From assembly GCF_001547755.1 (NCBI RefSeq), contig NZ_AP013042.1, positions 868,001 through 932,000 of the forward strand: a stretch of DNA of 64,000 bases. Reading direction: 5' to 3'. This DNA comes from an endosymbiont of Bathymodiolus septemdierum str. Myojin knoll. Lineage in GTDB: Bacteria; Pseudomonadota; Gammaproteobacteria; PS1; Pseudothioglobaceae. Below the pieces are notes generated by a model. That model was not told the DNA's origin and did not search any database. It worked only from the letters and a program-made list of their open reading frames with translations. Shown piece by piece: positions 16,730 to 40,181 of the stretch (positions within the stretch are counted from its first letter, which is position 1; every line of letters begins with the position of its first letter). The position numbers and the translations under genes were made by a program.

Positions 16730-16828
16730 ATGTTAAATAAATTTTACTCTGACCCTAATTATTCCAGTTCCAGCATATTAACGACAAAAAATGACAAAAA
16801 ATTTAACCCAAGGACTAACACCATCTGA
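16730..16828 (+). CDS. Possible 32-residue leader ORF
   Basis: An ATG with a well-spaced ribosome site (AGGAAG, 9 bp upstream) opens a 32-codon frame that overlaps the start of the 398-residue gene in another frame. It is Ser/Asn/Lys-rich with no recognised domain. It could be a leader that delivers ribosomes to the next start, or mean that the next gene has lost its own start region. Evidence is thin. Confidence 0.3.
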   Translation: MLNKFYSDPNYSSSSILTTKNDKKFNPRTNTI

Positions 16829-17987
16829 AAAGTTTATTAATGGTCTTTGTGAATCATCATTCTTAAAATTATGGACACATCCAAATCCCAAAGGTAAAAA
16901 AAATAAAGAATTATGCGATTGCCTAATTGTTTGTGGGGTGCATATCGTTATTATCTCTGTTAAGAAAATTGAATATAAAGATACAAACAACAAGACTGGA
17001 CATGATAGATGGGTCAAACAAGCAATAGACAAATCAGCAAAACAAATATACGGTGCGGAGCGTTGGCTAGAAAAAACAGATACCGTTACAAGGCACGATG
17101 AAAGGATAATCAATTTACCGCCTAAATCGGAAAGAATATATCACAGAATATCTGTCTCTTTAGGCTCAAAATTGCAAGTTCCTATGCCGTATGGAGATTT
17201 AGGAAATGGCTTTATACATGTTTGCGATGAAAAAAGTACAGAAATTTTATTTAAAGAACTTGATACAATTTTAGATTTTACAAATTTTTTACAGGCTGTT
17301 GAAAATTTATCAAATAAAACAAAACTGATTTTTGATGGCGGAGGTATTGAAGATTTAATTGCCTTATATTTACAAAATAATGATTTATTCAAAAATTGTA
17401 AAAATTCAAATTTAATGATATCGACAAACGATATATGGGATGGATGGGTAAATTCACAAGAATATAAAGATAGGTTGTTAGATTTACAGTCTTCCTATCC
17501 ATGGGATGGATTAATTGAGCATTATTCACAAGATTTATTATCTGGAGAAGTGTTTGATTTTTATAATCGAAAAGCCACAAATAATGATTGGGCTATTATG
17601 ACAATGGCTTTACAACCAAGAGATCATCGTGCAGTTCTTATGGATGCTTTTATTGAATGTCTAAATAATGATGAAAGTGCTTCTCGTATAGCACAAGGCT
17701 ATAACAACACTATTTTTGTTTTTTTAAGAGGTAAGCATTGTGATAGAGAACATAGATCCAAAGAATTGCTTTTAAGGTGCTGTATAGTGAGTGTCAATTT
17801 AGAAAATAAAATAATAGTTGGCATAGCAAGAGATAAACCAGAAGGAAATGGGTGTTCCTCAGATCTTGTGTATATAGAAGATAAAAACTGGACACAAGAA
17901 GAAAAAAATAAATACAAAGAACCTTCAAAAGAACTGAATTATTTTAAAGGTATAAATTGGAAAGAAATGAAAGAAATGAGTTTATGA
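16791..17987 (+). CDS. Nuclease-like protein of unknown function in an integron cassette
   Basis: The 398-residue product starts with SEKFINGLCESSFLKLW, then a possible PD-(D/E)xK core near residues 43-60: E-L-C-D, a hydrophobic strand, then I-I-S-V-K-K. The pattern resembles a restriction-type nuclease with Ser in place of Glu before the Lys, but this is only a pattern reading. A Cys/Trp-containing C-terminal half (about 250-398) is not recognised. The gene is clearly more AT-rich than its flanks and ends 7 bp before an attC site, so it is a cassette gene. A defence role is possible but unproven. Its own ribosome site is weak. Confidence 0.75.
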   Translation: MTKNLTQGLTPSEKFINGLCESSFLKLWTHPNPKGKKNKELCDCLIVCGVHIVIISVKKIEYKDTNNKTGHDRWVKQAIDKSAKQIYGAERWLEKTDTVTRHDERIINLPPKSERIYHRISVSLGSKLQVPMPYGDLGNGFIHVCDEKSTEILFKELDTILDFTNFLQAVENLSNKTKLIFDGGGIEDLIALYLQNNDLFKNCKNSNLMISTNDIWDGWVNSQEYKDRLLDLQSSYPWDGLIEHYSQDLLSGEVFDFYNRKATNNDWAIMTMALQPRDHRAVLMDAFIECLNNDESASRIAQGYNNTIFVFLRGKHCDREHRSKELLLRCCIVSVNLENKIIVGIARDKPEGNGCSSDLVYIEDKNWTQEEKNKYKEPSKELNYFKGINWKEMKEMSL

Positions 17988-35551: not shown

Positions 35552-36337
35552 CTATTGCTCTTGTTTTTGATATAAACAAAAACTCATACTGGCACCAAAC
35601 AACACCAATACCCAAGAAAAATAAACCCAAAGCATAAACAGCAATAGCATTGATAACGCGCCATAAATCAATTCATACAAGGGGAAATAATTAATATAGA
35701 TAAGCAAAATAGATTTTAAAATTTCTAAAAAAAAGGCAGTAATAAACCCAGATTTTAGTGCATTCTTCACAGTAATTTTTTCACTTGGAATGAAGTAATA
35801 CAATAAACCCAGTCCGATTGCCGAAAGGATAATAGGCAAACTAGAAATAAAAATACCGCCCATCGGCACAAATATAAAGAGTTTTGAGGCGCTCAAATAT
35901 GAGCTTACAAACAAAGATCCGGCTAAGAACAACGGACCCAAAACCAGCACCAGTAAATACTTTAATAAGCCCAATCCAAAATGGCGTTTTTTTCTCGCCC
36001 CCCACACTGAATTAATGCGATGATCCACTTGACGAAATAAGAAAAATGCCGCCAATATCAGAAACACAATACTAACACCTTTAAGCTTTTGCGCACTCGC
36101 AATAAATTGATGGATATACTGACTGATTACTTCATAATTTTTGGGTAACAACTGCTCAAACAAAAAAATTTCTAGATATTGTTGTAAGTCAGAAAAATAA
36201 GGCGATAAAGAGAACACACTAAAAACCAAAGTAAGCGTTGGCACAATCGCAAACAAAGTTGAAAATGACAACACTGCAGCCGAATCAAAACCATTTTTTA
36301 ACTTTAAATGCGTTAGTGCTAATTTTAAGGTGTTCAT
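35552..36337 (-). CDS. YihY/BrkB-family inner membrane protein
   Basis: The 261-residue protein has about six membrane segments and the family blocks DSAAVLSFSTLFAIVPTL, RQVDHRINSVWGA and LYELIYGALSMLLLFMLWVYFSWVLVLFGA. Such proteins were once called ribonuclease BN by mistake; the true function is unknown. Its ATG overlaps the stop of a 46-codon gene by one base (TAATG) and it is followed at once by ribE. Confidence 0.9.
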   Translation of the reverse strand: MNTLKLALTHLKLKNGFDSAAVLSFSTLFAIVPTLTLVFSVFSLSPYFSDLQQYLEIFLFEQLLPKNYEVISQYIHQFIASAQKLKGVSIVFLILAAFFLFRQVDHRINSVWGARKKRHFGLGLLKYLLVLVLGPLFLAGSLFVSSYLSASKLFIFVPMGGIFISSLPIILSAIGLGLLYYFIPSEKITVKNALKSGFITAFFLEILKSILLIYINYFPLYELIYGALSMLLLFMLWVYFSWVLVLFGASMSFCLYQKQEQ

Positions 36338-36477
36338 TAGTCTTTGTAGGTATATTCTGGTAAATCTTGCGTTTTAATCTTGACCACTTTTTTAGCTTTT
36401 TTATCCCAAATAACGGCATACTGCCCTAACGCTTTTTTAATGGCTAAAGCCTTATTGACGCTCTTTTTCATTGACAT
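36337..36477 (-). CDS. 46-residue basic protein, unknown function
   Basis: An ATG at 36477 opens a 46-codon Lys-rich frame (NKALAIKKALGQYAVIWDKK) with a final LPEYTYKD. It lies 10 bp after the zeta-toxin-like gene and its stop overlaps the yihY start by one base. It could be an antitoxin partner of the kinase or a small gene of the yihY operon. No family is recognised. Confidence 0.6.
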   Translation of the reverse strand: MSMKKSVNKALAIKKALGQYAVIWDKKAKKVVKIKTQDLPEYTYKD

Positions 36478-36487
36478 TAGGACTTCT

Positions 36488-37063
36488 CTATCGTTTAACA
36501 TTTTTAACCCTCAAAATTTCATCCATTATGCTTTGATTGTAAACAGTGAGATTGTCTTTATTTTTGTTAAAGATTAATTCACTGTGATTTTCGTTACCAA
36601 TACAAATAATACTATCGGTCACCAAAAAATAATCATTTATCAAATTCTCAATACTTCTATTATATCTTCTCTTAATATCTTCAAGCCTAATATTATGCCC
36701 GCCATTTTTAACCCTTTCTGCAACTCTATCAATAGATAAATTAACATTGGGTAAATACAGATAAAGCATTTGTACTCGCCAGTTATTTTGTTTTAGTCTA
36801 TTAATAAGTTTAATATAGTTCTTGCTCGCTAAAGTTGTTTCAATTGCAAAATTTTTTCTATTTTTAATGCATTTTTCAATCTCAATCAACATTAATTTTC
36901 CTGCTCTAAATTGAGATAAATCAGGGTTATTAGGTGAAAACCCTGTAGCAATTAAATCTGCGTTAATAAAAGTTGTTTGACTGTCTTTAAAATAATCCAG
37001 AGCAAAGGTTGTCTTCCCTGATCCGTTAACGCCTGCAATAATTGTTAAAATTGGATTATTCAT
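36488..37063 (-). CDS. Zeta-toxin-like P-loop kinase
   Basis: The 191-residue protein has Walker A GVNGSGKTT near residue 14, INADLIATGFSP near 33, FAIETTLASKNYI near 75 and a basic RVAERVKNGGH near 115, the layout of the COG4185/zeta toxin group. Zeta toxins phosphorylate UDP-N-acetylglucosamine and block wall synthesis. Many chromosomal relatives are unstudied. Its ATG overlaps the stop of the beta-helix membrane gene (4 bp), so the two are coupled. Confidence 0.82.
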   Translation of the reverse strand: MNNPILTIIAGVNGSGKTTFALDYFKDSQTTFINADLIATGFSPNNPDLSQFRAGKLMLIEIEKCIKNRKNFAIETTLASKNYIKLINRLKQNNWRVQMLYLYLPNVNLSIDRVAERVKNGGHNIRLEDIKRRYNRSIENLINDYFLVTDSIICIGNENHSELIFNKNKDNLTVYNQSIMDEILRVKNVKR

Positions 37064-38583
37064 AATTTTCTGCTATATTTTCTGAATGCTTGAATAGTTT
37101 GGTAAACAAGTAAACCTTCAATAATTCTAAAAATAAAATCTATTGCGTAAGTCAGACCGCTCCAATCACCACCAAACACATCCTTCACTTTATGTGATGG
37201 ATTTAAAAATATAAAAAATCTAGCGAAAAATTTACTCAAATCATCTAAAACATTTACACTTAAATCCGATATAGGCAAGAGATACAAAAGAAAAATATAA
37301 AGAAAAATAGAGAAAAATAGCAACCACTTTAGAGGGAGAAAAAGGTCTAAAGCAAAATCATTAGTATATTTATTGAAGCGTAAAGTTGCTCTATCTGATA
37401 ACGAGTATTCTTGATTGTTCTTTACTATTTGGTAATGATAATCCATTTCTTTAGCAAAGAATTTTATCGCTTGGGGTTGGTCGTTATTCCTTGATGCTAC
37501 ATTTTTTAAGATTCTATAGGTATCTTGTTTTTTCTCTAATTCATTTTCATCGCCGGTAGTTTGCTCAACCCCTATATCTTTATCACCCCAAATAAGATTT
37601 GTATAGTCAATTTCAGTAAAAATATTATCAAATATTACTACCTCATTAAATGAACCTATGTTAACACTTTGAAAATCAGTTTTCCCGATGGAAGTATTAT
37701 CAATTTGAAATTTTTTATTGTCGCTTGTTTCGTCTTTTTGATAAGTATTTTCAAAATAATCATGAGATATATTAAGAATATTGATTTTATAAAGTCTAAA
37801 CTTTCCTATATTTCTAAAATTTGTAAGTTTAAAATTTTCAAAATGACAATCTCCAATATTTAATTCTGCGTTTTGTGGGAGTTTTAAATTTGATAAAACA
37901 AAATCCTTAACACTAACAAAGCCAATTCTTAAATACACCCCATCATTAGCAGAGCAATCTATTAAATGTAATTTATTAAGGTGTAATTTTGTTTCTTGAA
38001 CAATTTCATATTTTTCAAAATCTGTTCCGCCTGGTAGTTGTGCTCTATGTTCGCTATTTCTGATTTTAAGTTTTTTAGAAAAATGACACCAGTTAAAAAT
38101 AAACGATAAGTCATTTTCTTTGTGGTCAAATTCTATTAAACACTCATCTTCAAATTTTGTATTCCAAAAAGCAAAATTTGGAATATTTGGTTTTTCATTA
38201 AACTGTTCACGAGAATATATGCTTGTGGTTTTATCGAACTCACCAGAAATCAAATAACTCCTCTTTATTGTTACTTCTTTTAAAAAAATATTATTACAGA
38301 AAATAAACAAACCCGAAGAAGTAAAATCATCATCAGTTAAAGATATCTCAAAATTAAAGACACATCTTTCAAAGACACATCTTTCATCAAGATTTTTCTT
38401 GCTTATACTTATGCTATCTAAAAACTTAAACCCCTCATCTTTTGTTTTTTCAAAGCGGTCGCGACATTCTGTTAAGGAATTTATCACTAGGTATTGTTGA
38501 CCTTCTATTGGTACGCGACCATTCTTATCTATCTCTATCTTCTCACCTCTATAGAAAATGCATTCGCCTTTTGATTCTGACAT
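37060..38583 (-). CDS. Beta-helix (pentapeptide-repeat-like) protein with C-terminal membrane segments
   Basis: The 507-residue product has no signal peptide. Residues about 60-330 show many short strand-like repeats (CVFERCVFNFE, LNIGDCHFENFKLTNFRNIG), as in pentapeptide-repeat or right-handed beta-helix proteins. A linker (TYRILKNVASRNND then KFFAKEMDYHY) leads to one or two membrane segments near 415-445 and a final hydrophobic helix near 475-500. The same layout occurs in uncharacterised pentapeptide-repeat membrane proteins. The gene is AT-rich and starts 12 bp after ybiT. It is the first gene of the unit with the zeta-like kinase. Confidence 0.75.
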   Translation of the reverse strand: MSESKGECIFYRGEKIEIDKNGRVPIEGQQYLVINSLTECRDRFEKTKDEGFKFLDSISISKKNLDERCVFERCVFNFEISLTDDDFTSSGLFIFCNNIFLKEVTIKRSYLISGEFDKTTSIYSREQFNEKPNIPNFAFWNTKFEDECLIEFDHKENDLSFIFNWCHFSKKLKIRNSEHRAQLPGGTDFEKYEIVQETKLHLNKLHLIDCSANDGVYLRIGFVSVKDFVLSNLKLPQNAELNIGDCHFENFKLTNFRNIGKFRLYKINILNISHDYFENTYQKDETSDNKKFQIDNTSIGKTDFQSVNIGSFNEVVIFDNIFTEIDYTNLIWGDKDIGVEQTTGDENELEKKQDTYRILKNVASRNNDQPQAIKFFAKEMDYHYQIVKNNQEYSLSDRATLRFNKYTNDFALDLFLPLKWLLFFSIFLYIFLLYLLPISDLSVNVLDDLSKFFARFFIFLNPSHKVKDVFGGDWSGLTYAIDFIFRIIEGLLVYQTIQAFRKYSRKL

Positions 38584-38594
38584 AATAATTAACT

Positions 38595-40181
38595 TTACCT
38601 TTGAGACTTTAAATAATCTTCGTAATTACCCGCATAATAAATAGCATCATTTTCTGTAAGTTCTATAATTTTAGTGGATAGTGATGAAACAAACTCTCTA
38701 TCATGGCTGACGAATATCAATGTCCCTTCATAATTCTCTAACGCAAGATTAAGTGCTTCAATAGACTCCATATCAAGGTGGTTGGTTGGCTCATCCATAA
38801 CTAAAACATTTGGATTTTGTAACATAAGTTTGCCAAATAACATCCTGCCTTTTTCACCACCAGAAAGAGATTTAACACTTTTTTCAATATCATCCTTACC
38901 AAATAGCATTTTCCCAAGAACAGAGCGCATATCTTGAATGTCTTGCTTTGGAGTTTTAAATTGTGCCATCCAATCTAAGACCGTTATGTCTTCTGCAAAG
39001 TCGTCACTATGATCCTGTGCGTAATAGCCAATATTAACATTCTCACTCCACTTAATCTTACCCTTGTCAGCTTCGATTTCGCCGACCAAGGTGCGTAGTA
39101 GCGTGGTTTTACCGGTACCATTTTGACCGATAATGGCAATGCGTTCTCCGACTTCAAAAAGAAAGTGAATGTCTTTTAAAACTTCCACACCATCAAAACT
39201 TTTATTTAACCCCTCTACTTCAATAATATTACGGTGCAAGGCTTTGTCTTGTCTGAAATTAATATAAGGGCTAACACGGGAGGATGGACGCATGTCATCT
39301 AACACAATTTTGTCTAATTGCTTAAGACGAGAAGTTGCCTGTTTAGATTTAGAGGCATTGGCAGAAAAACGCGAGACGAAGTGTTTAAGCTCCTTCATTT
39401 TTGCCTCTTTCTTGGCGTTATCTGACTGCATTTTCTCTTGAATGGCAGTGGCAGCAATCATAAAGTCATCATAGTTCCCTGGGAAGGTTTTTAATGCGCC
39501 ATAATCTAAGTCTGACATATGGGTGCAAACACCGTTTAAGAAATGCCTATCGTGAGAAATAATGACCATTGTGGCTTTACGAACTTTCAACACACCCTCT
39601 AACCAGCGAATTGAATCAATGTCCAAGTTGTTGGTTGGCTCATCAAGTAACAAAATTTCAGGATCAGAGAACAGTGCTTGCGCTAATAACACACGCAATT
39701 TCCAACCTGGTGCAATCTCACTCATTAGATTATAGTGCTGATCCTCGGGAATATCCAAACCTAGTAATAACTCACTGGCAGAAGATTCTGCCATATAACC
39801 ATCCATTTCAGCAAATTCCATTTCTAATTCTGCAACTTTGGTGCCATCTTTTTCACTCATTTCTGCCAAAGCATAAATACGCTCTCTTTCTTGCTTTACT
39901 TGCCAAAGTTTTTCGTGCCCCATAATCACGGCATCCACCACTCGATATTCTTCATAAGCAAACTGGTCTTGACGCAAAATACCCAATCGCTCACCATCAC
40001 TAATACTAACAGTGCCATGGGTTGGTGTTAATTCGCCAGTTAAAATTTTCATAAAGGTTGATTTGCCGCAACCATTGGCACCAATCAAGCCATAACGATT
40101 GCCGTCAGAAAATTTAATAGAAATATTTTCAAATAAAGGTTTTTCACCGAATTGCATGGTGATATTGGCGGTAGATATCAT
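38595..40181 (-). CDS. ybiT: ABC-F family ATPase YbiT
   Basis: ABC-F proteins act on the ribosome rather than in membrane transport. The 528-residue product has two ATP-binding cassettes with Walker [10 protein letters not shown] and GQNGTGKTT and signatures preceding [11 protein letters not shown] and [11 protein letters not shown]. The linker between them ([18 protein letters not shown]) matches YbiT very closely along its length. The promoter region is the 92-bp gap with divergent ftsW. Confidence 0.93.

What the first reader, a model, noticed from the sequence alone, without database searches (positions are those of the whole stretch)
36337..38583. Coupled beta-helix membrane protein, zeta-like kinase and 46-aa protein module
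Three AT-rich genes on one strand: a 507-residue pentapeptide-like protein with membrane ends overlaps a zeta-type kinase by ATGA, followed by a basic 46-aa protein whose stop overlaps yihY. Membrane sensor plus kinase plus small partner is a pattern compatible with an abortive or signalling toxin system not described to my knowledge.
Basis: inference. Interest (0 to 1): 0.7.

Follow-up and report, generated by a model that had tools for sequence, protein, structure and literature searches.

The report
Kinase toxin and new small partner
Inside a row of everyday genes this bacterium carries a suspected growth-stopping enzyme together with a tiny protein that probably keeps it switched off; the same pair turns up in many distant kinds of bacteria, while the neighbouring membrane protein looks like a separate traveller.

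Summary
The unit is two genes: a zeta-toxin-like kinase (kin) and a basic 54-aa protein (sm, not 46 aa) overlapping its end by 14 nt. A position-only test found a small ORF at the kinase stop in 65 of 80 relatives, against 23 of 430 other genes; profiles from half of these ORFs found the other half. In a kinase tree one clade of 105 has sm beside 95; a neighbouring clade of 12 has none. The sm family has no shared Pfam or NCBIfam model. In the window's family kin is broken or gone at 11 of 14 readable sm loci, sm still open at 7 of these; no intact kinase of this kind lacks sm there. The kinase fold is zeta/PezT/AvrRxo1/polynucleotide-kinase-like. Best reading: a reverse-order type II toxin-antitoxin pair, here between abcF and yihY, elsewhere sometimes in restriction operons. 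The 507-aa membrane protein is absent from the 99 other kinase loci checked. Toxicity, neutralisation, substrate and phage defence are untested.

The parts
38595..40181 (-). ABC-F ATPase gene (abcF), upstream border of the insertion site
   Evidence: Pfam ABC_tran 4.2e-50 and ABC_tran_Xtn; within 160 bp of yihY in 8 of 10 sm-free loci given to the script
37060..38583 (-). bh: 507-aa protein, pentapeptide-like N-terminal part, C-terminal membrane segment (residues 409-447); probably a separate mobile gene
36488..37063 (-). kin: 191-aa zeta-like P-loop kinase, presumed toxin
   Evidence: Pfam Zeta_toxin 2.2e-11; AlphaFold2 pLDDT 94, zeta/PezT/AvrRxo1/PNK fold
36337..36501 (-). sm: basic 54-aa protein, presumed antitoxin; helix 4-25 plus beta-hairpin 29-33/38-42 in the model; overlaps kin by 14 nt
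35552..36337 (-). yihY (Virul_fac_BrkB), downstream border of the insertion site; shares one base with sm
   Evidence: Pfam 7.4e-46

Best explanation
Kin-sm is a two-gene, reverse-order (toxin first) type II toxin-antitoxin module. Kin folds as a zeta-type small-molecule kinase and, when free, would phosphorylate an essential nucleotide-like metabolite and stop growth. It lacks the GTxR motif used to bind UDP-N-acetylglucosamine, so the target is probably something else, such as NAD or a nucleotide (inferred). Sm is made by coupled translation, binds kin and keeps it inactive (inferred). The pair moves as a cassette into transcribed operons: here between abcF and yihY, elsewhere after a purU-like gene and in or beside restriction operons (type I, type III, MmeI-like, McrBC). 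The kinase is then often lost while the harmless sm frame stays. The membrane protein bh in front of it is another mobile gene, sometimes settled near toxin or restriction modules, and is not needed by the pair.
For: Conserved pair: small ORF at the kinase stop in 65 of 80 relatives against 23 of 430 background genes, 30 of the 65 by exactly 4 nt overlap; half-set profiles find 65 of 65 held-out partners at E<=1 and 61 of 65 at E<=0.01, plus 6 of the 15 loci that failed the position test. Clade-bound: 95 of 105 kinases of one clade (support 100/98) with sm, 6 without, 4 at contig ends; 0 of 12 in a neighbouring clade, of which eight inspected members have another ORF just upstream. Kin and sm distances correlate (Spearman 0.49 for 65 pairs, 0 of 1000 permutations as high). 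Fold and active site. Loss pattern: kin broken or absent at 11 of 14 readable sm loci, sm open at 7 of those 11, no intact kinase of this kind without sm in the family. Sm held at protein level: pN/pS 0.10-0.37 in all pairs but two (synonymous sites are near saturation in many pairs). Insertion: abcF and yihY adjacent in 8 of 10 sm-free loci given. Precedent: AvrRxo1:Arc1 has the toxin first and arc1 stays intact behind inactivated toxin genes (PMC4938570, passages).
Against: No toxicity, binding or neutralisation was tested. Kin is 3.5 times longer than sm, so neutral decay would also break it more often. Sm is broken too at 4 of the 11 kin-less loci, and the pair G278-G226 has pN/pS 0.55. 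Kin and sm are both basic (+7.7 and +6.5), so simple charge pairing is not the mode. The sm model matches no PDB chain at E<=0.001. Six kinases of the clade, two on viral contigs, have no recognised sm, and the sm profile used there was built partly from the same loci. The half-set profiles also hit, at E<=0.01, five fragments each outside the strict kinase-adjacent interval, in six loci in all, most of them nearby.
Confidence: 0.65

Rival explanations
1. Kin is not a toxin but a repair or metabolic kinase (polynucleotide-kinase-like), and sm is a structural or activating subunit of it.
For: Polynucleotide kinase structures score the same as zeta (Z 15.2-15.6 against 15.8). Sm is a near-obligate partner within the clade, as a subunit would be. 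The UNAG motif is absent.
Against: An activating subunit has no reason to persist without its enzyme, yet sm stays open at 7 of 11 kin-less loci. Patchy distribution, insertion into housekeeping and restriction operons and repeated loss look like a toxin module. Pfam assigns Zeta_toxin above cut-off.
Confidence: 0.2
2. One reading: bh, kin and sm form one three-gene signalling or abortive system in which bh senses an event at the membrane and releases kin.
For: 4-nt overlap of bh and kin. Bh and kin or sm remnants stay together at the same site in G234 and G236. Bh relatives also lie near RelE-type, PIN-domain and McrBC genes in G230 and G233, so bh could serve several toxins.
Against: Bh is a long open frame in G234 although kin is truncated. 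No bh homologue in 99 other kinase loci, and the bh loci away from abcF-yihY show no kin or sm. At the same site a decayed kin plus sm stands without bh in G278, and in G226 a HpaII-type fusion takes that place.
Confidence: 0.08
3. Kin-sm is a guard of restriction systems: inhibition of the restriction enzyme by a phage frees kin, as PrrC does for EcoPrrI.
For: Pair attached to or within about 0.7 kb of Pfam-confirmed HsdS, HsdM, type III Mod/Res or MmeI-type genes in several loci; HsdS in the same row on pSYSG; McrB-sm-McrC in G230 and a short kin N-terminus fused to sm between McrB and McrC in G239.
Against: Restriction markers in only 5 of 80 loci of the broad set and 5 of 19 of the class set; 7 of these 10 are loci from which the markers were taken after I had seen the neighbours, and no random-locus control was run. 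The window copy has no restriction gene next to it (by eye).
Confidence: 0.07

Closest known systems
epsilon/zeta and PezAT toxin-antitoxin systems
   Same: Kinase fold (zeta 3q8x Z 15.8 over 176 residues, PezT 2p5t Z 14.7), P-loop, catalytic Asp region, Pfam Zeta_toxin
   Different: Partner gene lies downstream, not upstream (epsilon/PezA order recalled); sm is 54 aa, one helix plus hairpin, without sequence or PDB fold match; GTxR motif missing
AvrRxo1:Arc1 (toxin first, antitoxin downstream)
   Same: Best Foldseek hit of kin (6.5e-9); same gene order; antitoxin frame kept behind dead toxin genes (PMC4938570, passages)
   Different: Arc1-like proteins are mostly 81-98 aa, predicted 3 to 4 short helices, with a double-tyrosine motif that sm lacks by inspection; AvrRxo1 is about 420 aa and a secreted effector
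Rv0366c-Rv0367c, non-canonical PezAT-like pair
   Same: Short zeta kinase (197 aa) without the UNAG motif but with Asp36, as in kin (PMC6362051, passages)
   Different: Its antitoxin is upstream, 129 aa, with a predicted ribbon-helix-helix N-terminus
PrrC and PARIS restriction guards
   Same: PrrC is embedded in a restriction locus (PMC12707154, passages), as kin-sm is at some loci
   Different: Unrelated enzymes (recalled); restriction linkage of kin-sm is a minority trait
Pentapeptide-repeat proteins (for bh)
   Same: 3 of 7 family members match Pentapeptide_3
   Different: The window protein itself has no Pfam hit

Membership tests
Zeta toxin family (Pfam PF06414) | Profile score above Pfam's cut-off | tested here: met
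   44 bits against 22.3
Zeta toxin family (Pfam PF06414) | Walker A motif and catalytic Asp | tested here: met
   G11, N13, G14, G16, K17 and D36 invariant in 38 sequences; D36 taken as the equivalent of zeta Asp67 by analogy with PMC6362051
Zeta toxin family (Pfam PF06414) | Zeta-type kinase fold | tested here: met
   Model pLDDT 94; Z 15.8, 2.9 A over 176 residues to zeta; polynucleotide kinase and AvrRxo1 tie
UNAG-phosphorylating zeta/PezT toxins | GTxR substrate motif | tested here: not met
   No GTxR in kin
epsilon/zeta and PezAT toxin-antitoxin systems | Antitoxin encoded upstream of the kinase | tested here: not met
   sm is downstream; the upstream neighbour is the 507-aa bh
epsilon/zeta and PezAT toxin-antitoxin systems | Epsilon- or PezA-like antitoxin fold | tested here: inconclusive
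   No Pfam, NCBIfam, PDB-sequence or Foldseek match for sm; a missing match does not prove a different fold
AvrRxo1:Arc1 | Arc1-type antitoxin (mostly 81-98 aa, double-tyrosine motif) | tested here: not met
   sm is 54 aa and lacks KExFD...YExxYY by inspection; motif from PMC4938570
Type II toxin-antitoxin module (as a kind) | Conserved co-transcribed pair of a toxin-like enzyme and a small protein | tested here: met
   Pairing; co-transcription only inferred from overlaps
Type II toxin-antitoxin module (as a kind) | Toxicity and neutralisation by protein binding | not testable with these tools
   needs bench work
Three-gene bh-kin-sm module | Co-occurrence of the three genes across genomes | tested here: not met
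   bh with kin or sm only at one site in 3 genomes; no bh in 99 other kinase loci
Pentapeptide-repeat family (bh) | Pfam pentapeptide match | tested here: inconclusive
   0 for the window protein, 3 of 7 relatives
Known anti-phage system | PADLOC component match | tested here: inconclusive
   Only P-loop matches for kin, best AriA 1.5e-5; none for sm or bh

The most novel reading that the evidence does not exclude
Kin-sm is an unrecognised, pan-bacterial toxin-antitoxin family with its own antitoxin fold and a non-UNAG substrate, and it has repeatedly been built into restriction operons (type I, III, MmeI-like, McrBC) as a second line of defence that fires when restriction is blocked. Zeta-like kinases as a whole would then be a chassis that swaps small antitoxins, downstream in one clade and upstream and unrelated in its neighbour.
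Probability: 0.2. Interest if true: 0.78.

Novelty: new variant of a known kind. Interest (0 to 1): 0.52.

Why it matters
Proteins annotated 'zeta toxin family' are common (515 plasmid records hold a relative of kin). Here a short protein family without a database model is shown to be the genomic partner of a large kinase clade in more than ten phyla by record label, including a copy annotated only as 'hypothetical protein' on the Synechocystis plasmid pSYSG. That makes a simple toxicity and neutralisation test possible for dozens of loci. Kinases of the neighbouring clade carry another ORF on the other side, which would show how partner and gene order change in toxin evolution. The repeated loss of the kinase with survival of sm is a natural experiment on antitoxin orphans.

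Tried and rejected
Three-gene module: rejected on co-occurrence. Sm as a yihY-linked protein: rejected, since it sits in McrBC, type I and, with kin, purU-like contexts. Sm as a subunit of McrBC: considered, because it lies between McrB and McrC with overlaps in G230. I then found in G239, at the same place, about a dozen residues that read like the kinase N-terminus fused to sm (the piece alone scores only E 0.064), so a lost kin-sm pair is the better reading. Restriction linkage as the general rule: rejected, only 5 of 80 and 5 of 19; one further locus in each set matched only a RhuM/Fic marker, which I did not count.

Led nowhere: viral scans with sm (0 relatives) and bh (0); sequence search of PDB with kin, sm and bh (no close relative); structure match of sm; PHROGs (kin best to an ATPase and a polynucleotide kinase family); plasmid search with bh (none). 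Eleven viral contigs hold a kinase relative, 2 of them with sm nearby.

Literature: ten searches of an open-access library listed no paper that by title, abstract start or the passages I read describes this pair. I read only passages of PMC12839542, PMC12707154, PMC4938570, PMC6362051 and PMC4963859; all others only as listings. Subscription papers are mostly not in that library and no bioRxiv collection is held.

Rows dropped: the kinase model used 38 rows, a selection from the 80 loci plus the window. One search failed because L126 read through a stop; I then left out L126, L130, L151, L174 and L181 without checking whether the last four also failed. For sm I gave 45 of the 65 partners plus the window. 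In one search I gave 10 of the sm-free yihY loci, not all; in two of them (L227, L250) no abcF was found in the flank. In one search, 3 of 17 sm loci (G272, G231, G232) were set aside because contig ends cut off the upstream side; G236 was kept with only 227 bp because the bh end lies 41 bp before sm. In one search the targets L095-L099 were missed through a naming slip; those loci were covered.
Full report
What is there. The window is part of a single-contig genome of 1.47 Mb, rated 100% complete. On the minus strand runs a gene row abcF - bh - kin - sm - yihY and then what look like riboflavin genes (by eye). Bh begins 11 bases after the abcF stop; bh and kin overlap by ATGA; kin and sm overlap by 14 nt; sm and yihY share one base. 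The stretch is AT-rich (G+C 0.28-0.32). The small protein is 54 aa: its first ATG follows GAGGG and relatives align from that Met.

The insertion. AbcF and yihY lie within 160 bp of each other in 8 of the 10 sm-free related loci given to the script; in the other two no abcF was found in the flank. At the same junction other genomes of the family hold: bh plus a truncated kin plus sm (G234); bh plus sm with kin deleted (G236, where the assembly breaks inside bh); a decayed kin plus sm with a late stop (G278); decayed kin without sm (G255); sm alone (G229); frame-broken sm (G270, G282); or, in G226, a 661-aa fusion of a C5 methylase with a HpaII endonuclease followed by the last 24 residues of kin and an intact sm. 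So a cassette probably entered this operon in an ancestor and was then worn down.

The pair. Kin-sm stands without bh in G250 and G253, after a purU-like gene (by eye), and in G097. No bh homologue was found in any of 99 other kinase loci, the 19 and the 80 (flanks of about 1.5 and up to 6 kb). These ORFs were picked by position only. Profiles from one random half found all held-out partners at E<=1 (33 of 33 and 32 of 32) and 31 and 30 of them at E<=0.01. They also recognised partners in 6 of the 15 loci that the position test had missed, and each hit five fragments outside the strict interval (in L133, L162, L134, L123, and L143 or L168), several of them close to the kinase. The partners are therefore one family. 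Pfam and NCBIfam have no model for it: of 46 members no family matched more than two, all weakly.

Clade and partner. In a tree of 122 kinases one clade of 105 (support 100/98) has sm beside 95, none beside 6, and 4 lie at contig ends; a neighbouring clade of 12 has none (sm labels come from a profile partly built on the same loci, and the bootstrap had not fully settled). Of nine kinase loci outside the sm clade that I inspected, all have another ORF just upstream, 47-83 aa in eight and 164 aa in L079; six of the nine kinases sit directly before an hscA-like gene in genomes of the window's own family (gene name by eye). Among the 65 sm loci the distances of kinase and partner correlate (Spearman 0.49, highest of 1000 permutations 0.12).

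The kinase. The AlphaFold2 model is confident (pLDDT 94, pTM 0.89). Foldseek's best matches are AvrRxo1, PezT and zeta (6.5e-9 to 1.5e-7). In the second aligner zeta (Z 15.8), polynucleotide kinase (15.6) and AvrRxo1 (15.1) tie. P-loop residues and D36 are invariant in 38 sequences. The GTxR motif that zeta and PezT use for UNAG is absent (role of the motif from PMC6362051, passages). So kinase activity is likely, UNAG as substrate is not, and the real substrate is open.

The small protein. Model pLDDT 87: helix 4-25, hairpin 29-33/38-42, loose tail. No PDB match at E<=0.001. Charge +6.5; kin +7.7.

Asymmetric loss. In the window's family sm is found at 17 loci of 16 genomes. At 14 the upstream side can be read: kin is intact at 3 (G000, G250, G253) and broken or gone at 11. 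Sm is open at 7 of these 11 (G234, G226, G229, G230, both G235 loci, and G236 in a 49-aa form) and broken at 4 (G278, G239, G270, G282). No intact kinase of this kind lacks sm in the family. pN/pS between sm copies is 0.10-0.37 except 0.55 for G278-G226 and one near-identical pair without synonymous change; synonymous sites are near saturation in many pairs. The kinase is the longer target, so part of the bias is expected without selection. AvrRxo1:Arc1 shows the same pattern (PMC4938570, passages).

Restriction context. Pfam-confirmed neighbours of the pair are HsdS (L005, L015), type III Mod and Res (L017), Mod (L019) and an MmeI-type methylase (L176) directly beside it, and HsdM within about 0.7 kb (L184, L106). 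Markers lie near the pair in 5 of 80 and 5 of 19 loci, 7 of these 10 being loci from which the markers themselves came; no random-locus control was run, so I claim only that the link recurs. On pSYSG the order is HsdS - nucleotidyltransferase - kin - sm - DUF4433 - macro domain. [quoted passage not shown] that these include this pair is my inference from gene order. In G230 sm lies between McrB and McrC with overlaps at both ends; in G239 the same place holds about a dozen residues resembling the kinase N-terminus fused to sm, so a kin-sm pair probably once sat there. In G223 sm lies in a type I operon between an IrrE-like gene and HsdR, without a recognised kin. In the class search for sm, 12 of the 15 hits outside the window's own family stand beside an intact or remnant kinase by pairwise search or earlier fetch; G223, G089 and G351 do not, and G026, counted here as remnant, has its kinase pieces on another contig, so 11 of 15 is the strict count.

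The membrane protein. Bh relatives occur in 9 of 145 genomes searched, own genome included, some only as short or broken matches. Away from the abcF-yihY site they lie next to dusB-, cinA- or queE-like genes (by eye), in G230 also near a RelE-type gene and McrBC, in G233 near a PIN-domain gene, in G239 near an FRG-domain gene; three loci (G234 C52 and C104, G246) show no such neighbour. It looks like an independent mobile gene that sometimes shares landing sites with toxin and restriction modules.

Judgement. The three-gene signalling module is not supported. A reverse-order toxin-antitoxin pair of zeta-like kinase and an unmodelled small partner is the best reading (0.65). Shown: pairing, clade restriction, predicted fold, loss pattern, occupied and empty site. 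Inferred: toxicity, inhibition, coupling of translation, substrate, guarding of restriction.

Noticed in passing
L095:2082-4067 (G226): A single 661-aa protein fuses a C5 cytosine methylase to a HpaII restriction endonuclease and sits exactly at the abcF-sm-yihY junction, replacing the kinase except for its last 24 residues.
   Followed up: partly
L071:4123-4665, L072, L073, L074, L054, L079: A second zeta-like kinase in genomes of the same family has an unrelated ORF just upstream (most beginning like MKxKFDKKEKSILELD) and sits directly before an hscA-like gene; it falls in the neighbouring kinase clade without sm.
   Followed up: partly
L101:4637-4759 (G239): Between McrB and McrC about a dozen residues resembling the kinase N-terminus are fused in frame to the sm C-terminal part, a likely trace of a deleted kinase in an McrBC operon.
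   Followed up: yes
L040:4702-13189 (G230): Two bh paralogues in one region, one beside a RelE-type gene and one near an McrBC system.
   Followed up: partly
window 16791-17987 +: AT-rich stretch (G+C about 0.31) with a 398-aa ORF without any Pfam match at 0.001; possibly another foreign insert.
   Followed up: no
L205:1235-7593 (G223): Type I operon HsdS - IrrE-like peptidase - sm - HsdR with an sm but no recognised kinase.
   Followed up: partly
L212, L215 (viral contigs): Kinases of the sm clade on viral contigs without a recognised sm; their partner, if any, is unknown.
   Followed up: no
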